Assembly (NCBI GenBank): GCA_946409405.1
Contig: CAMJWL010000011.1
Coordinates: 1-38,063 of the forward strand
Length of the DNA stretch: 38,063 nucleotides
Direction of reading: 5' to 3'
Origin: an uncultured Bacteroidales bacterium
GTDB lineage: Bacteria; Bacteroidota; Bacteroidia; Bacteroidales; UBA3824
Shown here: piece by piece, positions 2,490 through 27,003 of the stretch
Position numbering within the stretch: position 1 is the first letter of the stretch
Layout: every line of letters starts with the position of its first letter
Position numbers and translations under genes: made by a program
Notes under the pieces: generated by a model
Told to the model about the DNA's origin: nothing
What the model saw: the letters and a program-made list of their open reading frames with translations, nothing else
The model's database searches: none

Positions 2490-3407
2490 ATGAACCCCAT
2501 CAACGAAAATCTCGCACAGGAATTTTACGAATACCTGACTTTGGAGCGGTCGATGTCGCAAAACAGCATCGACGCATACCGCGACGACATCAACAAACTG
2601 ATTTTTTACACCGAATCATATTTGGGCGACCGCAACCTCGACACGCTCACTATCAACGATTTGTCGCAATTTTTGGAATGGATTGCGGAGATTGGTCTGA
2701 GCGCGAGAACGCAGGCGAGGATTTTGAGCGGTGTCAAGCATTTTTACCTGTTTCTGTTTGCAGAAGGAAGGGTGGCGGAAAGTCCGGCGTACCTGCTCTC
2801 AACTCCAAAACTCGACATGAAACTGCCCACAGTGTTGACGGTGGAGGAAATAGACAAAATAGAGAGCGCGATAGACTTGTCGCAATTTGAGGGCGAAAGA
2901 AACCGCGCTATTATCGAAACTCTGTATAGTTGCGGGCTGCGAGTGTCGGAACTTATCAACCTTAAAATAAGCGACATCCATCCCGACGAAGGTTTCTTGA
3001 AAATCACAGGCAAGGGCGACAAAACACGTCTTGTACCAATCTCTGCATCTGCCTTGAAGTACATTGGTTTTTACATCGAACAGATGCGCTGCCACCTTGC
3101 CATCAACAATGCCAACAAAGACTTCCTTTTCCTCAACCGTCGCGGCGGTCAACTGACCCGCGTGATGATTTTCACAATCGTAAAAAAACTCTGCGAAAAG
3201 GCGGAAATCCACAAAAATGTAAGCCCGCACACTTTCCGCCATTCGTTTGCCACGCACCTCGTAGAAGGCGGTGCAGACCTCCGTGCCGTCCAAGAAATGC
3301 TCGGACACGAATCAATCCAGACCACGGAAATCTACACGCACTTAGACAATAATTTCCTACGAGACGCCATTATGACGTATCATCCGAGGAATATGGGCAA
3401 TTGTTAA
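2490..3407 (+). CDS. xerD: Site-specific tyrosine recombinase XerD
   Basis: 305 aa; N-terminal SAM-like domain plus catalytic motifs LYSCGLRVSELINL, SPHTFRHSFATHLVEGGADLRAVQEMLGH, TTEIYTHLD. Confidence 0.93.
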   Translation: MNPINENLAQEFYEYLTLERSMSQNSIDAYRDDINKLIFYTESYLGDRNLDTLTINDLSQFLEWIAEIGLSARTQARILSGVKHFYLFLFAEGRVAESPAYLLSTPKLDMKLPTVLTVEEIDKIESAIDLSQFEGERNRAIIETLYSCGLRVSELINLKISDIHPDEGFLKITGKGDKTRLVPISASALKYIGFYIEQMRCHLAINNANKDFLFLNRRGGQLTRVMIFTIVKKLCEKAEIHKNVSPHTFRHSFATHLVEGGADLRAVQEMLGHESIQTTEIYTHLDNNFLRDAIMTYHPRNMGNC

Positions 3408-6400
3408 TACCGCACTTTGTATGCCTTATTCGCAATCATCACCATCACTACTCCCCCACTCTTGCCAGGCAAAACTACTTCCTCGTGCGACGAATTGGTT
3501 TTGCCATTTATAAGCGGACGACCGGCTATGTCGATGATTGTGTAGTAGGTGCCGGGAGCGGTCTCGATGAAAACAGTCCTGCCATACGACCAAACTTTTG
3601 CCTGATTGCCGCTTGGCTTGATTTCAGATGTTGGAGTCTCAAAATCGTCAGTATTATTGTTGTCGTCAGGCTCTACTACGCGCACTTCGATGCGCTCCGG
3701 CAATTCCACAGCAGACTTTGAGAGCAAAACCTCATCCTCGCCTTCATATTTCAAGTAGCAACGGAACGGCTTGATGCTTGCCCCGGAACCCGCACGTACA
3801 AAATCGCCTACTTTGATGTCGCCATTGTCAGTCCCCGCAAAACCATATTCGGTAGGAGTTTGCTTATCCCATACCTTTTTCTGATAAACACCATTGAATG
3901 TCCAGGAGCCTACTTTCTGAGAGAGATCGTCAACAGATAGAGACTTGTTCGTCCAAATAAGGCTGTTGACATTATCATCTGTAATTTTGACGATGTACGG
4001 CTTGTTGGCTTCCAAAGAGGTTGCTTTTTCTACATCGACATACCATACTTCCTTCTCCTCGTCGTATATTACATCCTTGAATTGGTAAAAAGTGCCACAA
4101 CTGATTTCGGATTCCGACATGCCAAATGGCAGCACTATTGTGGAATACACGTCTTTGGTAAACGTGCGATTCAATGTGATTTCACTAACAGTAATGCCTG
4201 TTTCCAATTCCATAGCATCAGTGCCATTGTAATTGCCATCAAGGACAGCGGTCTTGGTGCTGCCCACTGTTGTAACCCGCAATGCTCCATAGTTTTCAAC
4301 AGACTCGCTTACGCCGCCTTCCTTGAAATTTTTATCCGCCTCCGCAACCTTTATATTCTTGAAAGTCTGCGTATTAAAAGACTTATTATCGTAATAGGCG
4401 TGCAAAGTGCCACTCCAATTTTTTTCGACAGGATAGGTGTAATTGCCGCTGGCGTCGGAGGTGGTGTAGTAGGTGGAAACACCATATATCATATATAGCA
4501 TTTTGTAGGATTTATCACTCTCTTTACTAACACTATAATTATAGCCATTACCATTATCGTAGTTCGCTTCCAATTGAATGTAATACTTTTTGCCAGGGGT
4601 AACGCTTACCAACTGGTCAAATTTTACAGAATGCCATTCAGTATATTGCGAAATATTAGATTTTGCAATTACAGAACGGCCATTTTCCACAACATTTTGA
4701 TTTTCGTCCAAAATTGAAATCGACACATCACTTGCAGGAGTTCCTACTTTCCAAAGACTGACATCCACCTGCGATATGTATGCAACTGTGGGAACAAACG
4801 GACATGTAGTTTTATTCAAACTTAATCCACCCACACCATTTTGATTATTAGCGTCAAGCGCAGGTACAGGTTTCGTCTCGCCAAGCGTTATCACCGCGCT
4901 CGAAAGCGTTTTAGAATTTTTGTCCATCACCTTGCCTGTAATGGCAAATACGTATGATCCTATCTGAACAAAATCCTTGTTATATTGATTAGACGACACA
5001 TTGCTGAAATGCAAGTTGTTAAACTCTTTAATACCAGAAAAAGCATTGAGAGTTCCCGACCAATATTTAGGAACAGAAAATGTGTAATTGCCATCCTTAT
5101 CGGTCGTTACATAATAATCGTCGATGCCCCATACCTTATACACATAATTATTCTCAGACAATGCGCCACAAATATAATAATTATCGTTGTCCTTCGAGGC
5201 CGTCAGAGAAATGTAATACTTCTGACCCTTAGTAACTGCAACTGGCTTGTCAAGTTCAATGTCAACGAATTTTAATGAAGTTGTGAACTCGTCTTTTTTG
5301 AATGAACTGCTGTTGCATATTTCTTTCATTTCGCCATCTAAAAGCGTAACCGTAAGATCGCTTGAAGGATTATTTTTTAACCAAATATACACGCCGAACC
5401 TTGTCACAAAGTTTGTATTCGGGACAAAGGCAATGGAAGTATTGTTGACAGCGTATCCTGAATTAAAACTTCCATCGTTCTGACAAGAAATCACTCCCTC
5501 TGGTATCTCATCTGCCGTAGTTACCACCGCGCCTTCTACTGGATTGTTGTCTGAATCCAATACTTGCCCCGAAATAGTAACATCGGCATCTGTCAATGCA
5601 ATGGATATTTCGCCCAAACCGACATTATGGTAAAAGTCGAGCGTATAATCTCCTGTCAATTTAAGATTTGCTGACGTTGAAACAAAACTGCCATACCTTT
5701 TATATTGTTTTTGTTCGCCGCCCAACACAATTGTAGAAGTAGTGTATGGCGCGAGATGGGTATTGTTATTGTTGCCATATTCAAAATAGAACTCGTACAC
5801 GCCCGCCGTCAATGTTACAGATTCGCTTTTGTACTGCAATGCATTGTCGTCGTTGCGGGACATTGATAGACTATGCTCCTTACCATTTCCCTTGATCACC
5901 AATTTAGTTGGCTCTTCCTGCATGGATGTTGCAGAGGTGAATTTGGGCTGAGGGATAATGATTCCCAGTTTTGTGGGATACAATGTGGTGGTAAACCAAC
6001 CGTTAGAATTACCGCCCCAGCCATAGTCAATGTGAAACATACTCCCATTATATCCATCAATTATATAAGAATGTGCACCACCTTTTTCATTGGAACCACT
6101 TATTATTACAGGCTTGGCACTTTTGATGGCATCCGCTATATAATTATCCTCTTCCAACGAAGATATAGATTGATACTTGGCATTGTAGCCAAAAACATCA
6201 TTAAAGGCGTTGGCCTGTTTATCAGGATATGTACCAGTTTCATCAGGACCAAATGCTGCCTCTTGGGCAAATGCAATGCCTACAATAAATTTAGCCAAAT
6301 CTCCATTGTTGTTAGCAATTTGCTCGAAATCTGGCGTGTAACTAAAACTATAAGTAAATTTATTGCCACCTTTATAAGTGATATAAGACGAGTTAATCGA

Positions 6401-6907
6401 ATGAATATTCGAATAAGATACCGTAGAGCCTTCGCCTGATATATTCAGCGGGTTGCAATAGCCATAATAATTGATCACTTGCGCCGAAGATATTGAAGAA
6501 CAGCCAGTGAGCGTACTTTTTGTCCACCGAGTATCAAGATCTTCTTTATCATAGAATGTGATGGTGGGACACTCGTCATTATAAGGTGCTCCCTGATTCC
6601 ATGCCGTGCGCAGCAGCGGGCCATAAGTGGCTGACGAAGCCGCTTTGGCATTGCCACGCTTTCTACTTGGCTCTTTTTGCGTGGCGTAAAAATCGAGCAA
6701 ATCCTGGAATGCCGGCGGCAGGTTCTTGGTGTCAAGCACACCGTCGCCATATCCCACCACCGTATTGCCAATCAAAATCTGCCAGCCGTCGGTGTTTTGC
6801 TCTATACGGACGTTGCCATCGGTATAGACGGTTTCCTGCGCTTCCACATTCTCTGCTATAAAAGCAAAGAGAAACAATGCTGTAAGAATAGAAAAGATTT
6901 TTTTCAT
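3404..6907 (-). CDS. C10 family (streptopain-like) peptidase, secreted, with carboxypeptidase-regulatory-like domains and T9SS-type C-terminal sorting domain
   Basis: 1167 aa; signal peptide; propeptide-like NLPPAFQDLLDFY; catalytic Cys LTGCSSISSAQ; His GGAHSYIIDGY; HIDYGWGGNSNGWF; two 'ISGQVLDSDNNPVEGAVV'-type domains; C-term YYTIIDIAGRPLINGKTNSSHEEVVLPGKSGGVVMV. Confidence 0.88.
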   Translation of the reverse strand: MKKIFSILTALFLFAFIAENVEAQETVYTDGNVRIEQNTDGWQILIGNTVVGYGDGVLDTKNLPPAFQDLLDFYATQKEPSRKRGNAKAASSATYGPLLRTAWNQGAPYNDECPTITFYDKEDLDTRWTKSTLTGCSSISSAQVINYYGYCNPLNISGEGSTVSYSNIHSINSSYITYKGGNKFTYSFSYTPDFEQIANNNGDLAKFIVGIAFAQEAAFGPDETGTYPDKQANAFNDVFGYNAKYQSISSLEEDNYIADAIKSAKPVIISGSNEKGGAHSYIIDGYNGSMFHIDYGWGGNSNGWFTTTLYPTKLGIIIPQPKFTSATSMQEEPTKLVIKGNGKEHSLSMSRNDDNALQYKSESVTLTAGVYEFYFEYGNNNNTHLAPYTTSTIVLGGEQKQYKRYGSFVSTSANLKLTGDYTLDFYHNVGLGEISIALTDADVTISGQVLDSDNNPVEGAVVTTADEIPEGVISCQNDGSFNSGYAVNNTSIAFVPNTNFVTRFGVYIWLKNNPSSDLTVTLLDGEMKEICNSSSFKKDEFTTSLKFVDIELDKPVAVTKGQKYYISLTASKDNDNYYICGALSENNYVYKVWGIDDYYVTTDKDGNYTFSVPKYWSGTLNAFSGIKEFNNLHFSNVSSNQYNKDFVQIGSYVFAITGKVMDKNSKTLSSAVITLGETKPVPALDANNQNGVGGLSLNKTTCPFVPTVAYISQVDVSLWKVGTPASDVSISILDENQNVVENGRSVIAKSNISQYTEWHSVKFDQLVSVTPGKKYYIQLEANYDNGNGYNYSVSKESDKSYKMLYMIYGVSTYYTTSDASGNYTYPVEKNWSGTLHAYYDNKSFNTQTFKNIKVAEADKNFKEGGVSESVENYGALRVTTVGSTKTAVLDGNYNGTDAMELETGITVSEITLNRTFTKDVYSTIVLPFGMSESEISCGTFYQFKDVIYDEEKEVWYVDVEKATSLEANKPYIVKITDDNVNSLIWTNKSLSVDDLSQKVGSWTFNGVYQKKVWDKQTPTEYGFAGTDNGDIKVGDFVRAGSGASIKPFRCYLKYEGEDEVLLSKSAVELPERIEVRVVEPDDNNNTDDFETPTSEIKPSGNQAKVWSYGRTVFIETAPGTYYTIIDIAGRPLINGKTNSSHEEVVLPGKSGGVVMVMIANKAYKVRY

Positions 6908-6927: not shown

Positions 6928-9873
6928 TTAATAACTGATTTTAAATGATTTTGCTCCAATCCTCACCATCACTACTCCCCCACTCTTGCCAGGCAAAACT
7001 ACTTCCTCGTGTGACGAATTTGTTTTGCCATTTATAAGCGGACGACCGGCTATGTCGATGATTGTGTAGTAGGTGCCGGGAGCGGTCTCGATGAAAACAG
7101 TCCTGCCATACGACCAGACTTTTGCCTGATTACCGTTTGGCACGATTTCAGAAGTTGGAGTCTCAAAATCATCGGGGAAGGTACTATCCTCGTTGTCAGG
7201 CTCTATGACTTCCGCAAACTCCTCTGGCTTTACGACGCGCACTTCGATACTCTCAGGAAGTTCGATGGCGGATTTCGAGAGAAACAATTGATTGTTGCCG
7301 ACATAAGTCAAGTAACAGCGAAATGGCTTGATGCTTGTGCCGTTACCAGCCCTAACGAAATCGCCAATTGAAATGCCATCGTCATTTTTCGTTCCAGCAA
7401 AACCATAATCTGTCGGCGTTTGTTTATACCAAACTTTCTTCTGATATACACCCTTGAAAATCCACTCTGCCGGATCTTTATCGGGTGTGGAATTTGTTGA
7501 TGGCGTCTTTATCAAAGCTTTTTTGACATTCCACGTCAGGGAGTTGACATTATCATTCGCCTTGAAAATATAAGGCGTATTGGCGGCGAGTGAACTTTGC
7601 TCTGTTACATCAGCGACCCATTTGTCTCCTTCCGGTTTAATGCCAGTAAATGAGTAAAACGTGCCACAAGTGATTTCTGACGTCTCAACATAAAACGGCA
7701 AAATTATCGTTGAATATACGCCTTTGGTCAACTGTCGGTTGAGCGTAACACTTGCTACCTCAATATCTTCAGGAATAGACATCCCGTCGGTGCCGGAATA
7801 ATTGCCATCGAGGGTTGCATGTTTTTTGCCGTCCTTACCAATAGTGATTGACAACGCACCATATTTTTCGCTACCGTCTGTGCTGAAATTATAGTCCTCA
7901 CCTGACGATGACGCTTCAATACCAATAGTGTTAAACGTCTTATATTTATATTGTGCGCTGAGCGTGCCGCTCCAATAATTGGAAATAGACAGCGAATAAT
8001 TTCCTTCTGCATCAGTAGTTGCATAACCATCAATGCCGAACACTTTGTAAATCAACGACCTGTTTTCGTCAATTTTACAAAAATATCTGATGCCATTGTC
8101 TTTGTCTTGCACCATATTGCTTATCATGATGTAATACGTCTGTCCCTTTGTAACCTTGATTGGGGTATCAAATTGTTGGTCAATGCAGACATATTCATTT
8201 TCGGAAAACAACTCTGGCAAATAGTCTTGACTCCATACAATTTCAGGATTATTATAATCTTCTATACTCGACACTATCGCAACATTCAATTTTTTTGTTG
8301 GATTGTTCCTTTTGATGACGTAAAGATTGAACCCTGTGATGTAATCTTTTTGCGGTACAAAATCAATCAGCAAAGGTTCTGCCGACCTACCGTGCTGGTC
8401 TATTGTGTGGTCGGGTGTGTTTTCGCTTGCAATTTCCAGTTCGCCAGATGCCGTTGCAAAAATAATAGCACCTTCTATCGCTTTATTATTTTCATCAACT
8501 ACCTTGCCCGCAATAGTCCTTGGTTCACTTTCGGACACTTCCACACTAATTTCGCCCTTCGACACATCATGGCAGAAAACAATGTCGCAACCTTCGGTCA
8601 AAATAATTTTTGCAGGTGTCGAGGTGAAACAACCGCGTTTTGTGAACGAAATATTGTTTTTGCCCAAAACAATAGATGCCGAGGCGGTGTAGGGTGCAAT
8701 TTTATCGTCAACGCCATAGTAAAAATAAAAAGTATGCTCTCCTTCTGTAAGGCTAATTGGAGCACTCTTGTACCGCAAATCGTTGCCTTCCAGTTGAATA
8801 TCATCATTACCATCAACTGCCAACATTAGCGATTCGGCTCGCATTGGAACATTATTTTCCACATTAGGATACGCGATAATGACAGAGGGGTCTTCAGGGA
8901 ATTCCGTAGCCGATATGTTCATAAACCAGCCATTCATATTGCCGTTATATCCATAGTCGATATGAACATAATCGTTGGTAATGTAACCATCAATTATATA
9001 AGAATGTCCACCATCTTTTTTATTACTACTTCCAATGATTATAGGCCTTGCTGCTTTAATAGCATTTACAACAATATCATCGGTTAAATCTGATATTGTA
9101 ATATCCTCATTGCCGCCATTATCCTGTTGAATATTGTAACCGAAAGTTTTTAGAGCGGCGATTTGGTGTTTTGTGCTAGTCCACGTGCCGCCGATGCCAT
9201 ACGCCGCTTTTTGCACCAATCCTATTCCCAAAAGGAACTTTGCCAATTCATTCTTGTCGGAGGCAATTAAGCCGAAATCAGGAGTGTAAACAGGAAATTT
9301 ATATTTGTTCTTGCCATTATCTTTATAAAAAAACTCTGATTCAACAAGTTCAAAATCGGCTGGATTGTCATCCTCCCCAGTTGCAAACGAAATATCTCCA
9401 ACCATCTCAGTCTCCGAAAACTGATTGCAATATCCATAATAGTTAAGTATCTGCGCCGTAGAAACCGAGGAACATCCAACTAAAGTGTAACCTGTTTTTT
9501 CCACACCATTTTCAGTGTATTTGATTTTCGGACATTGATTGTTGTACGGCGCACCTTGATTCCACGCCGTCGTCAACAGCGGGCCGTATTTTGTTGGAGC
9601 AGCACCGGCTTTCGAAAGTGTCTTCTTCTCTTTCGGCTCATCCATTTTAGCGTATGCGTCGAGAATGTCCTTGAACGCTGGCGGCATGTTGTCGAGGTCG
9701 ATTGCGCCGTCGCCAAATGCCATTACAGTGTTACCAAGAATGATCTGCCAGCCGTTGTCGCTCTGCACAATCCTTACATTGCCGTCGGTATAGACAGTCT
9801 GCTGTGCCTGTGCGATGCCCACATCAACCAGCAAAATTAATATTGCGGCAAATAATGTTAAATGCTTTTTCAT
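6928..9873 (-). CDS. C10 family (streptopain-like) peptidase paralog, secreted, with T9SS-type C-terminal sorting domain
   Basis: 981 aa; signal peptide; LVGCSSVSTAQ, GGHSYIIDGY; one carboxypeptidase-regulatory-like domain; C-terminal domain nearly identical to the downstream paralog. Confidence 0.87.
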   Translation of the reverse strand: MKKHLTLFAAILILLVDVGIAQAQQTVYTDGNVRIVQSDNGWQIILGNTVMAFGDGAIDLDNMPPAFKDILDAYAKMDEPKEKKTLSKAGAAPTKYGPLLTTAWNQGAPYNNQCPKIKYTENGVEKTGYTLVGCSSVSTAQILNYYGYCNQFSETEMVGDISFATGEDDNPADFELVESEFFYKDNGKNKYKFPVYTPDFGLIASDKNELAKFLLGIGLVQKAAYGIGGTWTSTKHQIAALKTFGYNIQQDNGGNEDITISDLTDDIVVNAIKAARPIIIGSSNKKDGGHSYIIDGYITNDYVHIDYGYNGNMNGWFMNISATEFPEDPSVIIAYPNVENNVPMRAESLMLAVDGNDDIQLEGNDLRYKSAPISLTEGEHTFYFYYGVDDKIAPYTASASIVLGKNNISFTKRGCFTSTPAKIILTEGCDIVFCHDVSKGEISVEVSESEPRTIAGKVVDENNKAIEGAIIFATASGELEIASENTPDHTIDQHGRSAEPLLIDFVPQKDYITGFNLYVIKRNNPTKKLNVAIVSSIEDYNNPEIVWSQDYLPELFSENEYVCIDQQFDTPIKVTKGQTYYIMISNMVQDKDNGIRYFCKIDENRSLIYKVFGIDGYATTDAEGNYSLSISNYWSGTLSAQYKYKTFNTIGIEASSSGEDYNFSTDGSEKYGALSITIGKDGKKHATLDGNYSGTDGMSIPEDIEVASVTLNRQLTKGVYSTIILPFYVETSEITCGTFYSFTGIKPEGDKWVADVTEQSSLAANTPYIFKANDNVNSLTWNVKKALIKTPSTNSTPDKDPAEWIFKGVYQKKVWYKQTPTDYGFAGTKNDDGISIGDFVRAGNGTSIKPFRCYLTYVGNNQLFLSKSAIELPESIEVRVVKPEEFAEVIEPDNEDSTFPDDFETPTSEIVPNGNQAKVWSYGRTVFIETAPGTYYTIIDIAGRPLINGKTNSSHEEVVLPGKSGGVVMVRIGAKSFKISY

Positions 9874-9995: not shown

Positions 9996-12900
9996 CTACT
10001 CTATCCCGTACCTCCGCAGCACTTCTCCGTCGGGCTTCCAGACCGTACCGTACAGCACCAATTCGTCGATATGCTTGGTGATGCCGTCGGGATTGAGCAT
10101 ACGCAACTTCAAGGTTTTCAGGCCGGTGTCGCTGTGGAACACTGAGAGGAGATATTTGCCGTCGGGGGAGAAAACGGCGTTTTTCACCATGCCGTCGTGC
10201 CTGAAATCCATGATGTCCTTGCCGTCGATAGTCCACAGGCGGGCGGAGCCGTCGTCGGAGGTGGTAACAATATATTTGCCGTCGGGCGAGAATACCGCCG
10301 AATTTACCTTGTTTTCGTAACCTCTAAATGTATATTGACGCTGCCCCATAATATCCCAAAGCACCGCCGTCTTGTCTGACGACGTGGAAACCAACAGCCG
10401 TCCGTCAGGCGAGAAAGCCACAGAATTAACCTGGCCGTCGTGAGCGTGGAAGGTGCGCAAAACCTTGCCCGAAATATCGCAAATAGACACGTTGCCATCC
10501 GTGGTGCCAAAGGCAAAAACCTCCGGCTCTGGCGACTGACACACCGCCGAAACTCCACACGCACACTTGATTACGGTGCTACCATACGTCTGGAGATTGT
10601 GAATTATCACGGTGGCGTCGTCGGAAATGGTGATGGCGTTTTTGCCGTCGCAAGTGAAGATGGCATCATTGACGATGTTAGAATGTTCGCCAAAAGTTTT
10701 GATGGGCGTACCGTCTGATTTCCAAAGAGTTGCAGTGCGGTCTTCGCAAGCCGTCAAAACCATAGAGCCGTCGGGCGAAAAACGCGACGTATTGATGTTG
10801 CCGTGATGCCCCGCAAACGTGGCTACCACATCGCCCGTCAAATTCCACGACTGCGCCACGGAATCCTGTACCACCATGATACGCAAGCCGTTAGCCGAAA
10901 ATCCCGCAAAACTAACATCCTTTGCCCTGTCGTAACTCTCAAATCTCTTGCCAATGCTCCACGTGCGGATGGTATGGTCGTCGCTAACAGTTACAATAGT
11001 CTGATTGTCAGGCTTGTAACGCGCACTCCAAACGTTGGAACCATGTCCTTTGAGTTCTTTTTCGAGAGGACCACGCGACGAAAATACGCGCACCACCTTG
11101 TCCCTGCAAGAAGTGATGATGTGCTTGCCGTCGGGCGAAAAACCAACAGAATTAATAAAGTCGCTGTGCCGGTCGAACACCACAAGTTCTTTGCCGCTGA
11201 CGTCCCACAGCCGCGCCTTGTGGTTGAGGTTGAGGTAATCGTTGGCGGCGAGGAGAATAAACTTGCCATCGGGCGAGAAAACCGCCTGACTTACCACCGA
11301 CATCGAATACCTGTTGTCTTCCTTGATAGTCAACTCCTTGCATTGAGAACCATCAACAGACCAAAGCCGCGCCGTATTGTCGATGCCCGACGAAACCACC
11401 ATCTTGCCGTCGGGCGAAAACTTGGCGCAATATACGTCCGAATCGTGTCCTCTAAGCGTTGATACACAATTGCCTACGCTGTCCCAGACCATCACGTTGC
11501 AATCGCTGCCGGCGGTGAGGAAGCCGCTGCCGTCGGGCGCAAAATCCGCCGTCCAAAGTATCGCCTTGTGTCCGTCTATCGTCATCAGTTGGCGGCCCTG
11601 CAAATCAAAAACACGCGCCGTGCTGTCGAACGAAGTGGTCAATATTTTTTTGCCGTCGGGCGACATCGTGATGGAAGTCAGTTCGTTGCTGTGAGGGATT
11701 TCGAGGAAAACATCACCATTTTCGCGAAGGATTCGGGCGGCAAATCTGTTGTTTGTGGTGTCGTTGACGTATGTCAAAACGTACTCGCCATCATCGGAAA
11801 TTTCCGCCTTCACCACCCTGCCATTCACCTCGCCAGAGATGTTGTAAAAAATATCAGTGTTATAAAACGAATTTAACAACGCGCTGTATGCCTGAGTGTT
11901 GCAACTATCCAACATTATCGCCTGTTGAGCAAGACGAAGGCTGAAAGTGGGGTCAGACTCCAATTTTTGGAACGCGAAAGCCGAGAGCATATTGCTCTTG
12001 GAAACATTTGCGCTATGCTCCACGTCGCCCTTCAACGAAAACGCCAAAAATACCGCCGAAATGCTCAACAACAGCACCGCCACCAACGCGCCAATCAAAG
12101 TTGGAATTGGAGTACGAGTGGTATTTGCATGAGTGATTAATGCGGCAGTTTTCGGTTGGCGGACGAGCCGTCCGCGCTCCACAACGCCATCCTTCAACCG
12201 CCCAAAAATATCACCACTAAATGGCAAGTAATACACCCTGCCATCATTGGCAATAAAATGTTTGAAGACGTAATGCGACACCATGTAGTCGAGCGTCTCC
12301 TCCTCCACCCCATACCTGACAACGGCGATGCCACGGTATGCCGGCAACGGTTGCGACTCGCCATCTACAACCATTTCGCCCGCCGCAAACGACAGCAACG
12401 CATCGCGCCGATTATTGTCTGCCATGGAATCCATCACTTCGTCAAAATACGAAACCTTGAAATATTCGGAAATTTCCATCATTGGAAGCGTCAGGTTGTC
12501 AAAGCCTTTGCCCTCCTGACGGATGTACAAAACGGCGTTGCGCAAAAGTCCGGGATGCACCGTGCCGCCGCTCGACGCAAAATGCGACACCAAATATTCC
12601 ACCGCCGCAGCCTCCATAGTAACAGGTGGAAGTCCGTCGTGCGGCTCGGCGGCAATGAGAGGAACGGCGATTTTGGCGGTCTCCACGTCAAAAGGCTGGA
12701 GTTCCAAGACATTCTTGAAAATATTGGGGATGCTGTCTGCCAACTGCGACAACAGCGGGAAAGTGGAATTGCCCACCACAAAAAGCAACGAAATTTTTGG
12801 CGGCTCTATCAGCAACATCATGCCGTCCTGAGGCAACAATGCGTCGCTCTCGCCAAGCATTATCTCCTGCATTTTGTCGGCTACTTTGGTAGGCACTTCG

Positions 12901-13382
12901 CCGTTGGCAAGACGCGAAACCGACGCCGCAAACTCGCGCCGCGCCGCCTCGCCGTATGTAAAATAATTGTCGAAATCGTCGAAAATGAAATAAAAATTTT
13001 TCTTGTCTTTATAGTTTGCTTGGAGTTTTTTGGCGGCGTACCACAGCGAGCCGTCGTCCTCAAAAGCGAGGTCGAGGTAGGTGGGCTTGTCGCACAATTG
13101 ATTGATGATGGCAACAAGTTGTTTCTCAAGTACCTTGTCGCCAAAACGAAATTTAGGTATGTTGAACCGCACAGCCACGGCGTTGCGGCGGTCGAGGTTG
13201 TCGGGTGCAATGGCAGCGTTAACGAGCGATGTTTTGCCCGTCTTAGGTGCTGAGCGCAAGACGTTTACGCTGTTGCTATCGAGCATCACAGACAGCCTAC
13301 GCGCTTCGTCGCTGCGACATGGCAACACCTCGCCCACCTTATATTCGTCAATCCCCAAAAATAAACTATTTTCCATTTTCAT
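9996..13382 (-). CDS. nSTAND-like NTPase - TM - WD40 (14-blade) protein
   Basis: P-loop LRSAPKTGKTSLVNAA; Walker B-like FYFIFDDFDNYF (cf. nSTAND 'DQFEELF'); TM TLIGALVAVLLLSISAVFLAFSL; LRLAQQAIMLD linker; 14 repeats with FSPDGK...D.TARLW signatures. ORF track start is 13499, but MKMENSL at 13382 (or 13376) is more plausible. Confidence 0.85.
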   Translation of the reverse strand: MKMENSLFLGIDEYKVGEVLPCRSDEARRLSVMLDSNSVNVLRSAPKTGKTSLVNAAIAPDNLDRRNAVAVRFNIPKFRFGDKVLEKQLVAIINQLCDKPTYLDLAFEDDGSLWYAAKKLQANYKDKKNFYFIFDDFDNYFTYGEAARREFAASVSRLANGEVPTKVADKMQEIMLGESDALLPQDGMMLLIEPPKISLLFVVGNSTFPLLSQLADSIPNIFKNVLELQPFDVETAKIAVPLIAAEPHDGLPPVTMEAAAVEYLVSHFASSGGTVHPGLLRNAVLYIRQEGKGFDNLTLPMMEISEYFKVSYFDEVMDSMADNNRRDALLSFAAGEMVVDGESQPLPAYRGIAVVRYGVEEETLDYMVSHYVFKHFIANDGRVYYLPFSGDIFGRLKDGVVERGRLVRQPKTAALITHANTTRTPIPTLIGALVAVLLLSISAVFLAFSLKGDVEHSANVSKSNMLSAFAFQKLESDPTFSLRLAQQAIMLDSCNTQAYSALLNSFYNTDIFYNISGEVNGRVVKAEISDDGEYVLTYVNDTTNNRFAARILRENGDVFLEIPHSNELTSITMSPDGKKILTTSFDSTARVFDLQGRQLMTIDGHKAILWTADFAPDGSGFLTAGSDCNVMVWDSVGNCVSTLRGHDSDVYCAKFSPDGKMVVSSGIDNTARLWSVDGSQCKELTIKEDNRYSMSVVSQAVFSPDGKFILLAANDYLNLNHKARLWDVSGKELVVFDRHSDFINSVGFSPDGKHIITSCRDKVVRVFSSRGPLEKELKGHGSNVWSARYKPDNQTIVTVSDDHTIRTWSIGKRFESYDRAKDVSFAGFSANGLRIMVVQDSVAQSWNLTGDVVATFAGHHGNINTSRFSPDGSMVLTACEDRTATLWKSDGTPIKTFGEHSNIVNDAIFTCDGKNAITISDDATVIIHNLQTYGSTVIKCACGVSAVCQSPEPEVFAFGTTDGNVSICDISGKVLRTFHAHDGQVNSVAFSPDGRLLVSTSSDKTAVLWDIMGQRQYTFRGYENKVNSAVFSPDGKYIVTTSDDGSARLWTIDGKDIMDFRHDGMVKNAVFSPDGKYLLSVFHSDTGLKTLKLRMLNPDGITKHIDELVLYGTVWKPDGEVLRRYGIE
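12159..12181. repeat. REP-like GC hairpin GCGGACG-AGC-CGTCCGC-GCTCCA inside the nSTAND-WD40 coding sequence
   Basis: 20 of 23 positions match 25231-25253; two of the three differences are a compensatory A-T/G-C stem pair. Confidence 0.75.
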
Positions 13383-13442
13383 TTCATTTTCATTTTCTGT
13401 CAAATACACAAACTTTATAAATCTCCAATAAATTATGGTTGA

Positions 13443-13450
13443 CAAAAGTA
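13443..13450 (-). promoter_or_regulatory. Possible -7 element (TACTTTTG) for the nSTAND-WD40 gene
   Basis: Reverse complement of caaaagta; lies upstream of the MKMENSL start; -33 element is weak. Confidence 0.4.
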
Positions 13451-13529
13451 CAAAATATTTTACATATAAAACATAAAAATTCTTTAAATTCTTCCCCATT
13501 CTTTTAATTTTTGGAGAAGAGCAAAAAAA

Positions 13530-25079: not shown

Positions 25080-25158
25080 AATGCAACAGAAATTTTGGGT
25101 TACACTTGCCGCCGCCGCTGGCAGCGGAGATTTTATAAACACAAATTAAAAGAAAAAA

Positions 25159-25202
25159 AAAGAATTAAAAGAATTTTTTTTATTAAATTCTTTTAATTCT
25201 TT
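25159..25202. repeat. 18-bp perfect inverted repeat with 8-nt loop, built from AATTCTTTT units; same design as 18522-18567
   Basis: aaagaattaaaagaattt (25159-25176) tttttatt aaattcttttaattctttt-type arm (25185-25202), followed by a third unit cattcttaaa. Confidence 0.93.
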
Positions 25203-25230
25203 CACATTCTTAAAATTTTATGGAAAAGAC

Positions 25231-25253
25231 GCGGGCGAGCCGCCCGCACTCCA
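25231..25253. repeat. REP-like GC hairpin GCGGGCG-AGC-CGCCCGC-ACTCCA
   Basis: Perfect 7-bp stem with AGC loop; related to the copy at 12159-12181. Confidence 0.8.
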
Positions 25254-25263
25254 ATACTTCAAA

Positions 25264-27003
25264 TTAGACTACTGCTGTGCCATCCTCGGCAGTGGCGGCG
25301 TAGAAGGCGCAGTCGATGCCGAAGGCGGCGCGGTATGCGGGGGCGATGATGGATTTGTATTCTTCGAGTTTGTCGGCCTTGATGAGCGACAATGTGCAGC
25401 CGCCAAAACCGCCGCCCATTATCCTCGAACCAAGTACATAGTCCATCTGCTTGGTCTGCTCAACGAGGAAGTCCAATTCCTTGCAACTAACTTCGTACAA
25501 CTTGCTGAGGCCGTCGTGCGTTGCGTAGAGCAACTTGCCAAATTCGACGAGATTGTTGTCGTTAAGTTGCTTGCAAGCCTCAATGACGCGGTCGTCCTCC
25601 TCGATGACGTAGCGGCAGCGGTTATAGACCTTTTCGGAGATTTGGTCTTTTGCTGCGTCGAGCATATCGATGGTAACGTCGCGGAGGGTTTTCACGTAGG
25701 GTGATTGTTTCTGTATAACACTGATGCCGGCGGCACATTCGGCGCGGCGGGTGTTGTATTCCGACGACGCGAGAGAGTGCTTGACCTTGCTGTCGGTGAG
25801 TACAAAAATGTAGTCGCCGAGTACGAGGTTGTTGTATTCGTATTGAAGGCTGCGGCAGTCGAGGCGCACACAGTGGTTTTCCTTGCCAAAAATGCTTGCA
25901 AATTGGTCCATAATGCCGCACTTGACGCCGACGTATTCGTGTTCTGACTGTTGGCCGATTCTTGCCATAAGCATCTTGTCGAGGTTGAGATTGTAGAGCG
26001 TGGAGATGCCGAGGCACATACCGCTTTCCAACGCCGCCGAACTCGACATTCCCGCGCCGACAGGCACGTCGCCGCCAAAGACGCAGTTGAAGCCGCCTAT
26101 CTTAAAGCCCTTCTGCTGAATGATTTGCGTAATGCCGTACAAATACGACGCCCATTGCTCTTTGGGGGCTTCCTTTTGATTGACATTGAACTCGCAGTAC
26201 GAATTGAAGTCGTAGGAATTGAGGCAGACCTTGCCGTCGTCGCGCTTGTCCATCGCGAAGTAAATCGCCTGGCTAACAGCGCAAGGCAACACGAAACCTT
26301 CGTTGTAGTCGGTGTGTTCGCCGATGAGGTTGATGCGCCCCGGGGCGCGGAGTTGAAGCGGTTCGCCGCCGTAAAGTTCCTTGTACTTTGCGACGATGTT
26401 TTTGAGTAACTGATTGTTCATATTCTTTTCAATTTGACGGAGTTTTTGGTATATTTTCAGCCCAACCCAAGCGTCGGTTGCGCCGTATATTTTCTGACTG
26501 TTTTTGAGTTTTTCCTCCTCCCAATTGCTCACCTGCTGGCTCTTGGAAATGCGGAAACCGAGGACGATGCCGCTGAGTTTTTTCAAGCCGCAAGCCTCGA
26601 TGCCAAATTTTGTGCTGTACTTGGACAAATCCACAAACCCGGCTGGCGCAAACTGCGTCCAACGTTGCAATCCAAGCACGTCGTCGTTGATGGCGACGCC
26701 GGTCTTGATGATGTTGGGGTTGGCGAGGATGCCGGCAATCTGCTTTGGCAGACCGATGTTGCAGGTGCGTATGAGGTACGCCCGCTCCTCGGTGGAGAGT
26801 TGCAGGAGCGCGACCTTGTTTTTGCTGCCGCGACTGAAACACGGTTTGGTCTCGGTGTCGAATCCGAGCACACTCTGACGCGACAGGTATTTGACACACG
26901 CAGCCACCTTGCCGGGCGAGTCAATCACCTCGATTGTACCTTCAAACGCTTTGAGCGGCAACTCGTTGAGGTCTTCCTTCGATATGTCTTTTTCAAAATG
27001 CAT
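25264..27003 (-). CDS. Fusion protein: N-terminal DEDDy 3'-5' exonuclease + C-terminal galactokinase
   Basis: 579 aa. Exonuclease: SVLGFDTETKPCFSRG, GVAINDDV, YGATDAWVGLKIYQKL. Galactokinase from MNNQLLKN at 26421: APGRINLIGEHTDYNEGFVLPCAV, GAGMSSSAALE, GGGFGGCTLSLI. Confidence 0.9.
   Translation of the reverse strand: MHFEKDISKEDLNELPLKAFEGTIEVIDSPGKVAACVKYLSRQSVLGFDTETKPCFSRGSKNKVALLQLSTEERAYLIRTCNIGLPKQIAGILANPNIIKTGVAINDDVLGLQRWTQFAPAGFVDLSKYSTKFGIEACGLKKLSGIVLGFRISKSQQVSNWEEEKLKNSQKIYGATDAWVGLKIYQKLRQIEKNMNNQLLKNIVAKYKELYGGEPLQLRAPGRINLIGEHTDYNEGFVLPCAVSQAIYFAMDKRDDGKVCLNSYDFNSYCEFNVNQKEAPKEQWASYLYGITQIIQQKGFKIGGFNCVFGGDVPVGAGMSSSAALESGMCLGISTLYNLNLDKMLMARIGQQSEHEYVGVKCGIMDQFASIFGKENHCVRLDCRSLQYEYNNLVLGDYIFVLTDSKVKHSLASSEYNTRRAECAAGISVIQKQSPYVKTLRDVTIDMLDAAKDQISEKVYNRCRYVIEEDDRVIEACKQLNDNNLVEFGKLLYATHDGLSKLYEVSCKELDFLVEQTKQMDYVLGSRIMGGGFGGCTLSLIKADKLEEYKSIIAPAYRAAFGIDCAFYAATAEDGTAVV

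What the first reader, a model, noticed from the sequence alone, without database searches (positions are those of the whole stretch)
12159..12181. REP-like palindrome embedded in the nSTAND-WD40 coding sequence, matching an intergenic copy with compensatory stem change
GCGGACG-AGC-CGTCCGC-GCTCCA here versus GCGGGCG-AGC-CGCCCGC-ACTCCA at 25231-25253. It matches 20/23 positions. Two of the three differences are the two partners of one stem pair (A-T vs G-C), so the stem is preserved. On the minus strand it encodes VERGRLVRQP, in the linker between the NTPase/winged-helix region and the TM helix. Such a tolerant position fits an in-frame insertion of a mobile palindrome into a protein.
Basis: seen in the sequence. 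Interest (0 to 1): 0.7.

Follow-up and report, generated by a model that had tools for sequence, protein, structure and literature searches.

The report
Mobile REP hairpin inside bacterial gene
A 23-base hairpin in this rumen Bacteroidales gene is one of about 70-100 copies of a small mobile repeat that sister species carry around, and inside, a REP-type transposase gene; such repeats are a known kind, but this one has an unusual end and sometimes lands in frame inside proteins.

Summary
The palindrome at 12159-12181 is a dispersed repeat, TGGRRYGC-RGRCG-GCT-CGYCY-GC. Its genome (uncultured rumen Bacteroidales MAG, 88% complete) holds 68 copies with at most one mismatch (control 0). Two stem pairs covary, the TGG end is invariant, and neighbouring copies are mostly head-out inverted pairs (REPIN/BIME-like). 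Sister species encode a REP-associated tyrosine transposase (RAYT; NCBIfam NF047646 above cut-off) flanked by inverted copies of the same repeat, with more copies in frame inside its own gene. No RAYT was found in this genome. A REP lies at the linker site of the STAND-WD40 protein in four species forming one clade (100/99 support), not in outgroups; but the linker here is not longer than REP-less ones. A cleaner case in the same genome: IspG carries a head-out REP pair (net +54 nt, in frame) exactly where two ~90%-identical orthologues lack it. Intragenic REPs, including inside RAYT genes, are already published. What differs is the head (TGGA, not GT[AG]G), the host group, and REPs N-terminal to the HUH motif. 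A new variant of a known kind, of moderate interest.

The parts
12159..12181 (-). REP copy inside the coding sequence: head TGGAGC, 7-bp stem GCGGACG/CGTCCGC, loop GCT
   Evidence: fold
12153..12182 (-). Codons 440-449 (VERGRLVRQP), the REP-derived linker segment
   Evidence: Translation and orthologue comparison
9996..13499 (-). Host gene: 1167-aa STAND-like NTPase, TM helix, WD40 repeats
   Evidence: nSTAND1 only sub-threshold
12039..12101 (-). TM-like hydrophobic segment that follows the linker (about residues 467-487)
   Evidence: Read from the translation; inference
25231..25253 (-). Intergenic REP copy, 10 nt beyond the stop codon of the gene at 25264-27003, between two minus-strand genes

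Best explanation
The palindrome is a member of a REP family: a 23-nt hairpin element with an asymmetric TGGA-type head, copied around the genome by a REP-associated tyrosine (HUH/Y1) transposase of the kind sister species still encode. The likely process is that the RAYT recognises head and hairpin on single-stranded DNA, nicks beside it and transfers the strand, so that single REPs and head-out pairs (REPINs) land at new sites. Most surviving copies are between genes. Because the repeat usually has no stop codon in any frame, some insertions inside genes stay in frame, and those in tolerant linkers persist. The copy at 12159-12181 is one of these, in the linker of a STAND-WD40 protein, most simply gained in the ancestor of a four-species clade and then eroded. 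Shown: the repeat family, the covarying stem, the paired orientation, the RAYT-REP association in sister species, and an empty-site comparison at IspG. Inferred: the enzymatic steps, that this RAYT family made these copies, and near-neutrality of the insertions.
For: 68 copies against 0 controls, limited to one genus. Invariant TGG end in 67/67 and covariation at two stem pairs. 11 head-out, 0 head-in neighbour pairs. RAYT genes flanked by, and holding, the same REP in G002, G010 and G018, with a truncated copy in G016; NF047646 above cut-off; E. coli TnpA_REP 4er8 at E=2e-6. Related RAYTs have their own hairpins. REP at the same linker site in one clade of orthologues. In-frame REP pair in IspG with empty site in two close orthologues.
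Against: No RAYT found in the own genome, which is 88% complete. The head is not GT[AG]G. The window's linker is not longer than that of REP-less orthologues, and G007 has another REP type in another frame at the site. No enzymatic evidence.
Confidence: 0.9

Rival explanations
1. The repeats are kept for a host function (transcription termination, mRNA stability, nucleoid or gyrase binding) rather than being selfish mobile DNA; the copy in the gene is a by-product or has a regulatory role in the mRNA.
For: The window's other copy lies just beyond a stop codon between two same-strand genes; such roles are proposed for REPs in other bacteria (PMC3733652).
Against: Copy number varies from 0 to 68 between species of one genus, and copies occur inside unrelated proteins and in the transposase gene itself. 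It also does not compete with mobility as the origin.
Confidence: 0.06
2. An RPE-like (Rickettsia palindromic element; CGTC-tagged) insertion family with no transposase.
For: RPEs are the best-known palindromes inserted in frame in proteins, and CGTC repeats are reported from Bacteroidetes (PMC3733652).
Against: The end tag is TGGA, and the repeat flanks and invades a RAYT gene in sister species.
Confidence: 0.03
3. The match is a coincidence: linker codons happen to resemble the intergenic palindrome.
For: The linker is a variable region; short matches can arise by chance.
Against: A 23-nt match to a 68-copy family with 0 reversed-pattern controls; the same REP in the same frame in two more species.
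Confidence: 0.01

Closest known systems
REP/REPtron with RAYT (TnpA_REP) of E. coli and Stenotrophomonas (PMC2817692, PMC8266576)
   Same: Short GC-rich hairpin with an asymmetric head, many copies, head-out pairs, transposase gene flanked by inverted copies; the S. maltophilia REP is also 23 nt with a GCT loop.
   Different: Head is TGGA two bases from the stem instead of GT[AG]G at the stem foot; host is Bacteroidales; the RAYT is only distantly similar (E=2e-6 to 4er8).
RAYT subclass 2.4 / group 4, with REPs inserted in frame in the tnpA_REP gene (PMC6006769)
   Same: REPs inside the RAYT gene without loss of frame; present in Bacteroidetes; NHVH and YIxNNP motifs.
   Different: REPs here lie before the HUH motif rather than between HUH and Y; HUH-Y distance 60 rather than median 88; non-canonical head.
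RAYT subclass 2.6 / group 5 of Bacteroidetes, with atypical hairpins (PMC6006769)
   Same: Bacteroidetes host, YIHNNP motif, SS after the core, hairpins that are not GT[AG]G-tagged.
   Different: HUH-Y distance 60 against a median of 82; WM instead of WQ; not placed on a tree with reference sequences.
Rickettsia palindromic elements RPE-4/6 (CGTC repeats; PMC3733652)
   Same: Palindromes inserted in frame in unrelated proteins, often as dimers.
   Different: RPEs are CGTC-tagged and have no known transposase; this family has a RAYT in sister species.

Membership tests
REP (repetitive extragenic palindrome) | 20-40 nt imperfect palindrome in many dispersed copies | tested here: met
   68 copies, 0 controls; 7-bp stem, 3-nt loop
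REP (repetitive extragenic palindrome) | Conserved GT[AG]G head at the foot of the stem | tested here: not met
   TGG in 67/67 and TGGA in 61/67, two bases from the stem
REP (repetitive extragenic palindrome) | Pairs in inverted orientation (REPIN/BIME) | tested here: met
   11 head-out, 0 head-in, 6 same-strand neighbours within 300 nt
REP/RAYT system (REPtron) | RAYT gene flanked by inverted copies of the repeat | tested here: met
   In sister genomes G002, G010, G018, truncated in G016
REP/RAYT system (REPtron) | RAYT in the same genome as the repeats | tested here: inconclusive
   None in the 88%-complete own genome
REP/RAYT system (REPtron) | HUH and tyrosine motifs, REP-associated tyrosine transposase family | tested here: met
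   NF047646 92.9-99.6 bits against a cut-off of 80 for three RAYTs of the genus; HVH and YIHNNP
REP/RAYT system (REPtron) | RAYT binds and cuts the single-stranded REP | not testable with these tools
   Needs biochemistry
[quoted passage not shown]
   REPs lie N-terminal to HVH
RPE / CGTC repeats | CGTC end tag, no transposase association | tested here: not met
   TGGA tag and RAYT association

The most novel reading that the evidence does not exclude
In this genus a RAYT with a non-canonical TGGA guide inserts REPs into coding sequence as well as between genes, its own gene included, so that REP-derived peptides (ECGRLVRQ, ADEPSALQ, GVQAARLP) recurrently build new inter-domain linkers. REPs would then be a continuing source of protein linker sequence, and possibly a brake on the RAYT itself.
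Probability: 0.15. Interest if true: 0.6.

Novelty: new variant of a known kind. Interest (0 to 1): 0.38.

Why it matters
It gives a clear natural record of REP insertion into proteins: a REP shared at one gene by four species, and a close empty/filled comparison in the widely conserved enzyme IspG. It shows RAYT-linked REPs with a non-GT[AG]G head diversifying across one rumen Bacteroidales genus, which makes head and loop recognition testable with natural variants (loops GCT, TCCC, TTCCA).

Tried and rejected
1) Aligned the other 1167-aa ORF (3404-6907) as a possible paralogue: unrelated, a C10 peptidase. 3) Looked for a RAYT in the own genome with a profile and with a protein: none. 4) Coincidence and RPE/CGTC explanations rejected as above. 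5) Strict placement of the RAYT in subclass 2.4 or 2.6 abandoned: the motifs are mixed, the HUH-Y distance fits neither, and no reference tree was built. 6) The automatic intragenic call on L158 is doubtful (probably upstream of the true start) and was not counted. 7) A literature search with 'GGAG' found nothing.

Full report
OBSERVATION. The window holds GCGGACGAGCCGTCCGCGCTCCA at 12159-12181 and GCGGGCGAGCCGCCCGCACTCCA at 25231-25253. Both lie on the minus strand when read as TGGAG..., differ at three positions, and two of those are the partners of one stem pair. None of 100 shuffles of the window gave a match. In the whole genome (MAG, 3.56 Mb, 300 contigs, 88% complete) the 17-nt core occurs 34 times exactly and 11 times with one mismatch, against 1 for the reversed pattern. 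The 23-nt form with at most one mismatch occurs 68 times against 0.

THE ELEMENT. In 1.38 Mb of sampled stretches (39% of the genome) 67 copies lie within three mismatches, against 0 for the reversed pattern. The part of the sample taken mostly without regard to known copies (1.16 Mb) holds 32, or roughly 100 per genome. TGG at the left end, outside the stem, is invariant in 67/67 and the fourth base is A in 61/67, so the element is asymmetric. Stem pairs 9-21 and 11-19 vary as G-C or A-T; three copies break the first and none the second, one G-T counted as paired. The single strand folds as a 7-bp stem with a 3-nt loop. Neighbouring copies within 300 nt are 11 head-out, 0 head-in and 6 same-strand, the REPIN/BIME arrangement. 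Of 35 distinct sequences, 32 have no stop in any of six frames, against 24% of random window 23-mers. The 23-nt pattern is absent from 291 Bacteroidales genomes outside the genus, and the core is present in 16 of 19 genomes within it.

THE TRANSPOSASE. The own genome gave no Y1_Tnp match and no match to the sister RAYT. In sister genomes G002, G010 and G018 a Y1 transposase lies between inverted copies of this very palindrome, and in G016 a contig-truncated copy has the repeats on its remaining side. Three RAYTs of the genus match NF047646 (REP-associated tyrosine transposase) above its cut-off. G008's relative matches the solved E. coli TnpA_REP, 4er8, at E=2e-6; that RAYT is flanked by, and carries, TGGAGTGCGGGCTTCCAGCCCGC instead. 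RAYTs of rumen Bacteroidales further away carry yet other hairpins, many with a GG-containing head. All complete RAYTs of this family found in the genus contain REPs in frame in the stretch before the HUH motif. This resembles the RAYT-REP co-diversification described in gammaproteobacteria (PMC2817692).

THE INSERTION IN THE STAND-WD40 GENE. Orthologues in G010 and G011 have the REP at the same linker site and in the same frame (GVELECGRLVRQT, GMECGRLVRQT). G007 has TGGAGTGCAGGCATCCCTGCCTGC there, a different multicopy REP type, in another frame. G012 and the more distant orthologues have unrelated residues. The four REP-bearing genes form one branch with 100/99 support, so one gain in their ancestor is the simplest account; replacement or a second insertion in G007 is not excluded. 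G010 and G011 also keep an eroded inverted REP further along the linker, read directly from the sequence. The linker is highly length-variable, and in the window it is shorter than in REP-less G012, so a plain length gain is not demonstrable at this gene.

A CLEAN CASE IN THE SAME GENOME. IspG (TIGR00612 above cut-off) on contig C175 carries a head-out REP pair, EKLECGRFMECGRLVRQDLSNADEPSALQ, where the about 90%-identical orthologues in G010 and G011 read EKFINNKNIINKL: a net gain of 54 nt with the frame kept on both sides. The pair folds on itself at -28.7 kcal/mol. The contig ends inside this gene, so its C-terminus is unseen. A 368-aa protein (anti-sigma-like by eye, no NCBIfam match) holds four REPs, and an NRPS-like protein holds two just before its thioester-reductase domain. 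In all about 9 of 67 sampled copies are confidently intragenic, in four genes; the others are intergenic or unclear. Gene calls here are my own codon-score heuristic.

MECHANISM. From published biochemistry (PMC8266576), TnpA_REP binds the head and hairpin on single-stranded DNA, cuts near it and can transfer the strand. Applied here, the RAYT would scatter REPs and REPINs; insertions that break proteins are lost, and in-frame ones in linkers remain. The enzymatic steps are inferred.

KNOWN OR NEW. Intragenic REPs are published (PMC3733652), as are in-frame REPs in RAYT genes, for subclass 2.4, generally between HUH and Y (PMC6006769). That paper also lists a Bacteroidetes RAYT subclass (2.6) with 'atypical' hairpins. 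Differences here: head TGGA not GT[AG]G; REPs N-terminal to HUH; HUH-Y distance 60; several loop types in one genus; and the IspG insertion. I file it as a variant of REP/RAYT, not as a canonical GTAG REP. The literature library holds open-licence papers only, so an earlier description elsewhere is possible.

Noticed in passing
window 25264-27003 (-): One 579-aa ORF joins a 3'-5' exonuclease domain (DNA_pol_A_exo1, residues 26-190) to a galactokinase (GHMP kinase, residues 206-546), an unusual fusion.
   Followed up: no
window 3404-6907 and 6928-9873 (-): Two adjacent C10 (streptopain-type) peptidase genes, a tandem duplication with 91% identical 3' ends.
   Followed up: no
window about 25145-25203: A/T-only inverted repeat between two minus-strand genes, beside the intergenic REP.
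   Followed up: no
L103, L106, L108, L110, L111, L113: Other Y1 transposase genes of the genus lie beside their own unrelated hairpin repeats (for example GGGCGGACCTGCGTGTCCGCCC, CGTGGGTGCAAACCCACG, CGGGGGTTCACACCCCCG), so several separate repeat/transposase systems may coexist.
   Followed up: no
L098:1534-1553, L099:1614-1633, L100:671-690, L116:560-575: A perfect palindrome, ACGTTATCAWWTGATAACGT or its core, sits in the conserved RYQMITYR codons of the RAYT gene in several species; it may be only a protein constraint or an mRNA hairpin.
   Followed up: no
L137-L139: More distant RAYTs have in-frame copies of a different hairpin (CGCAGGTCTCCGCGCCTGCG type) in the same N-terminal linker.
   Followed up: partly
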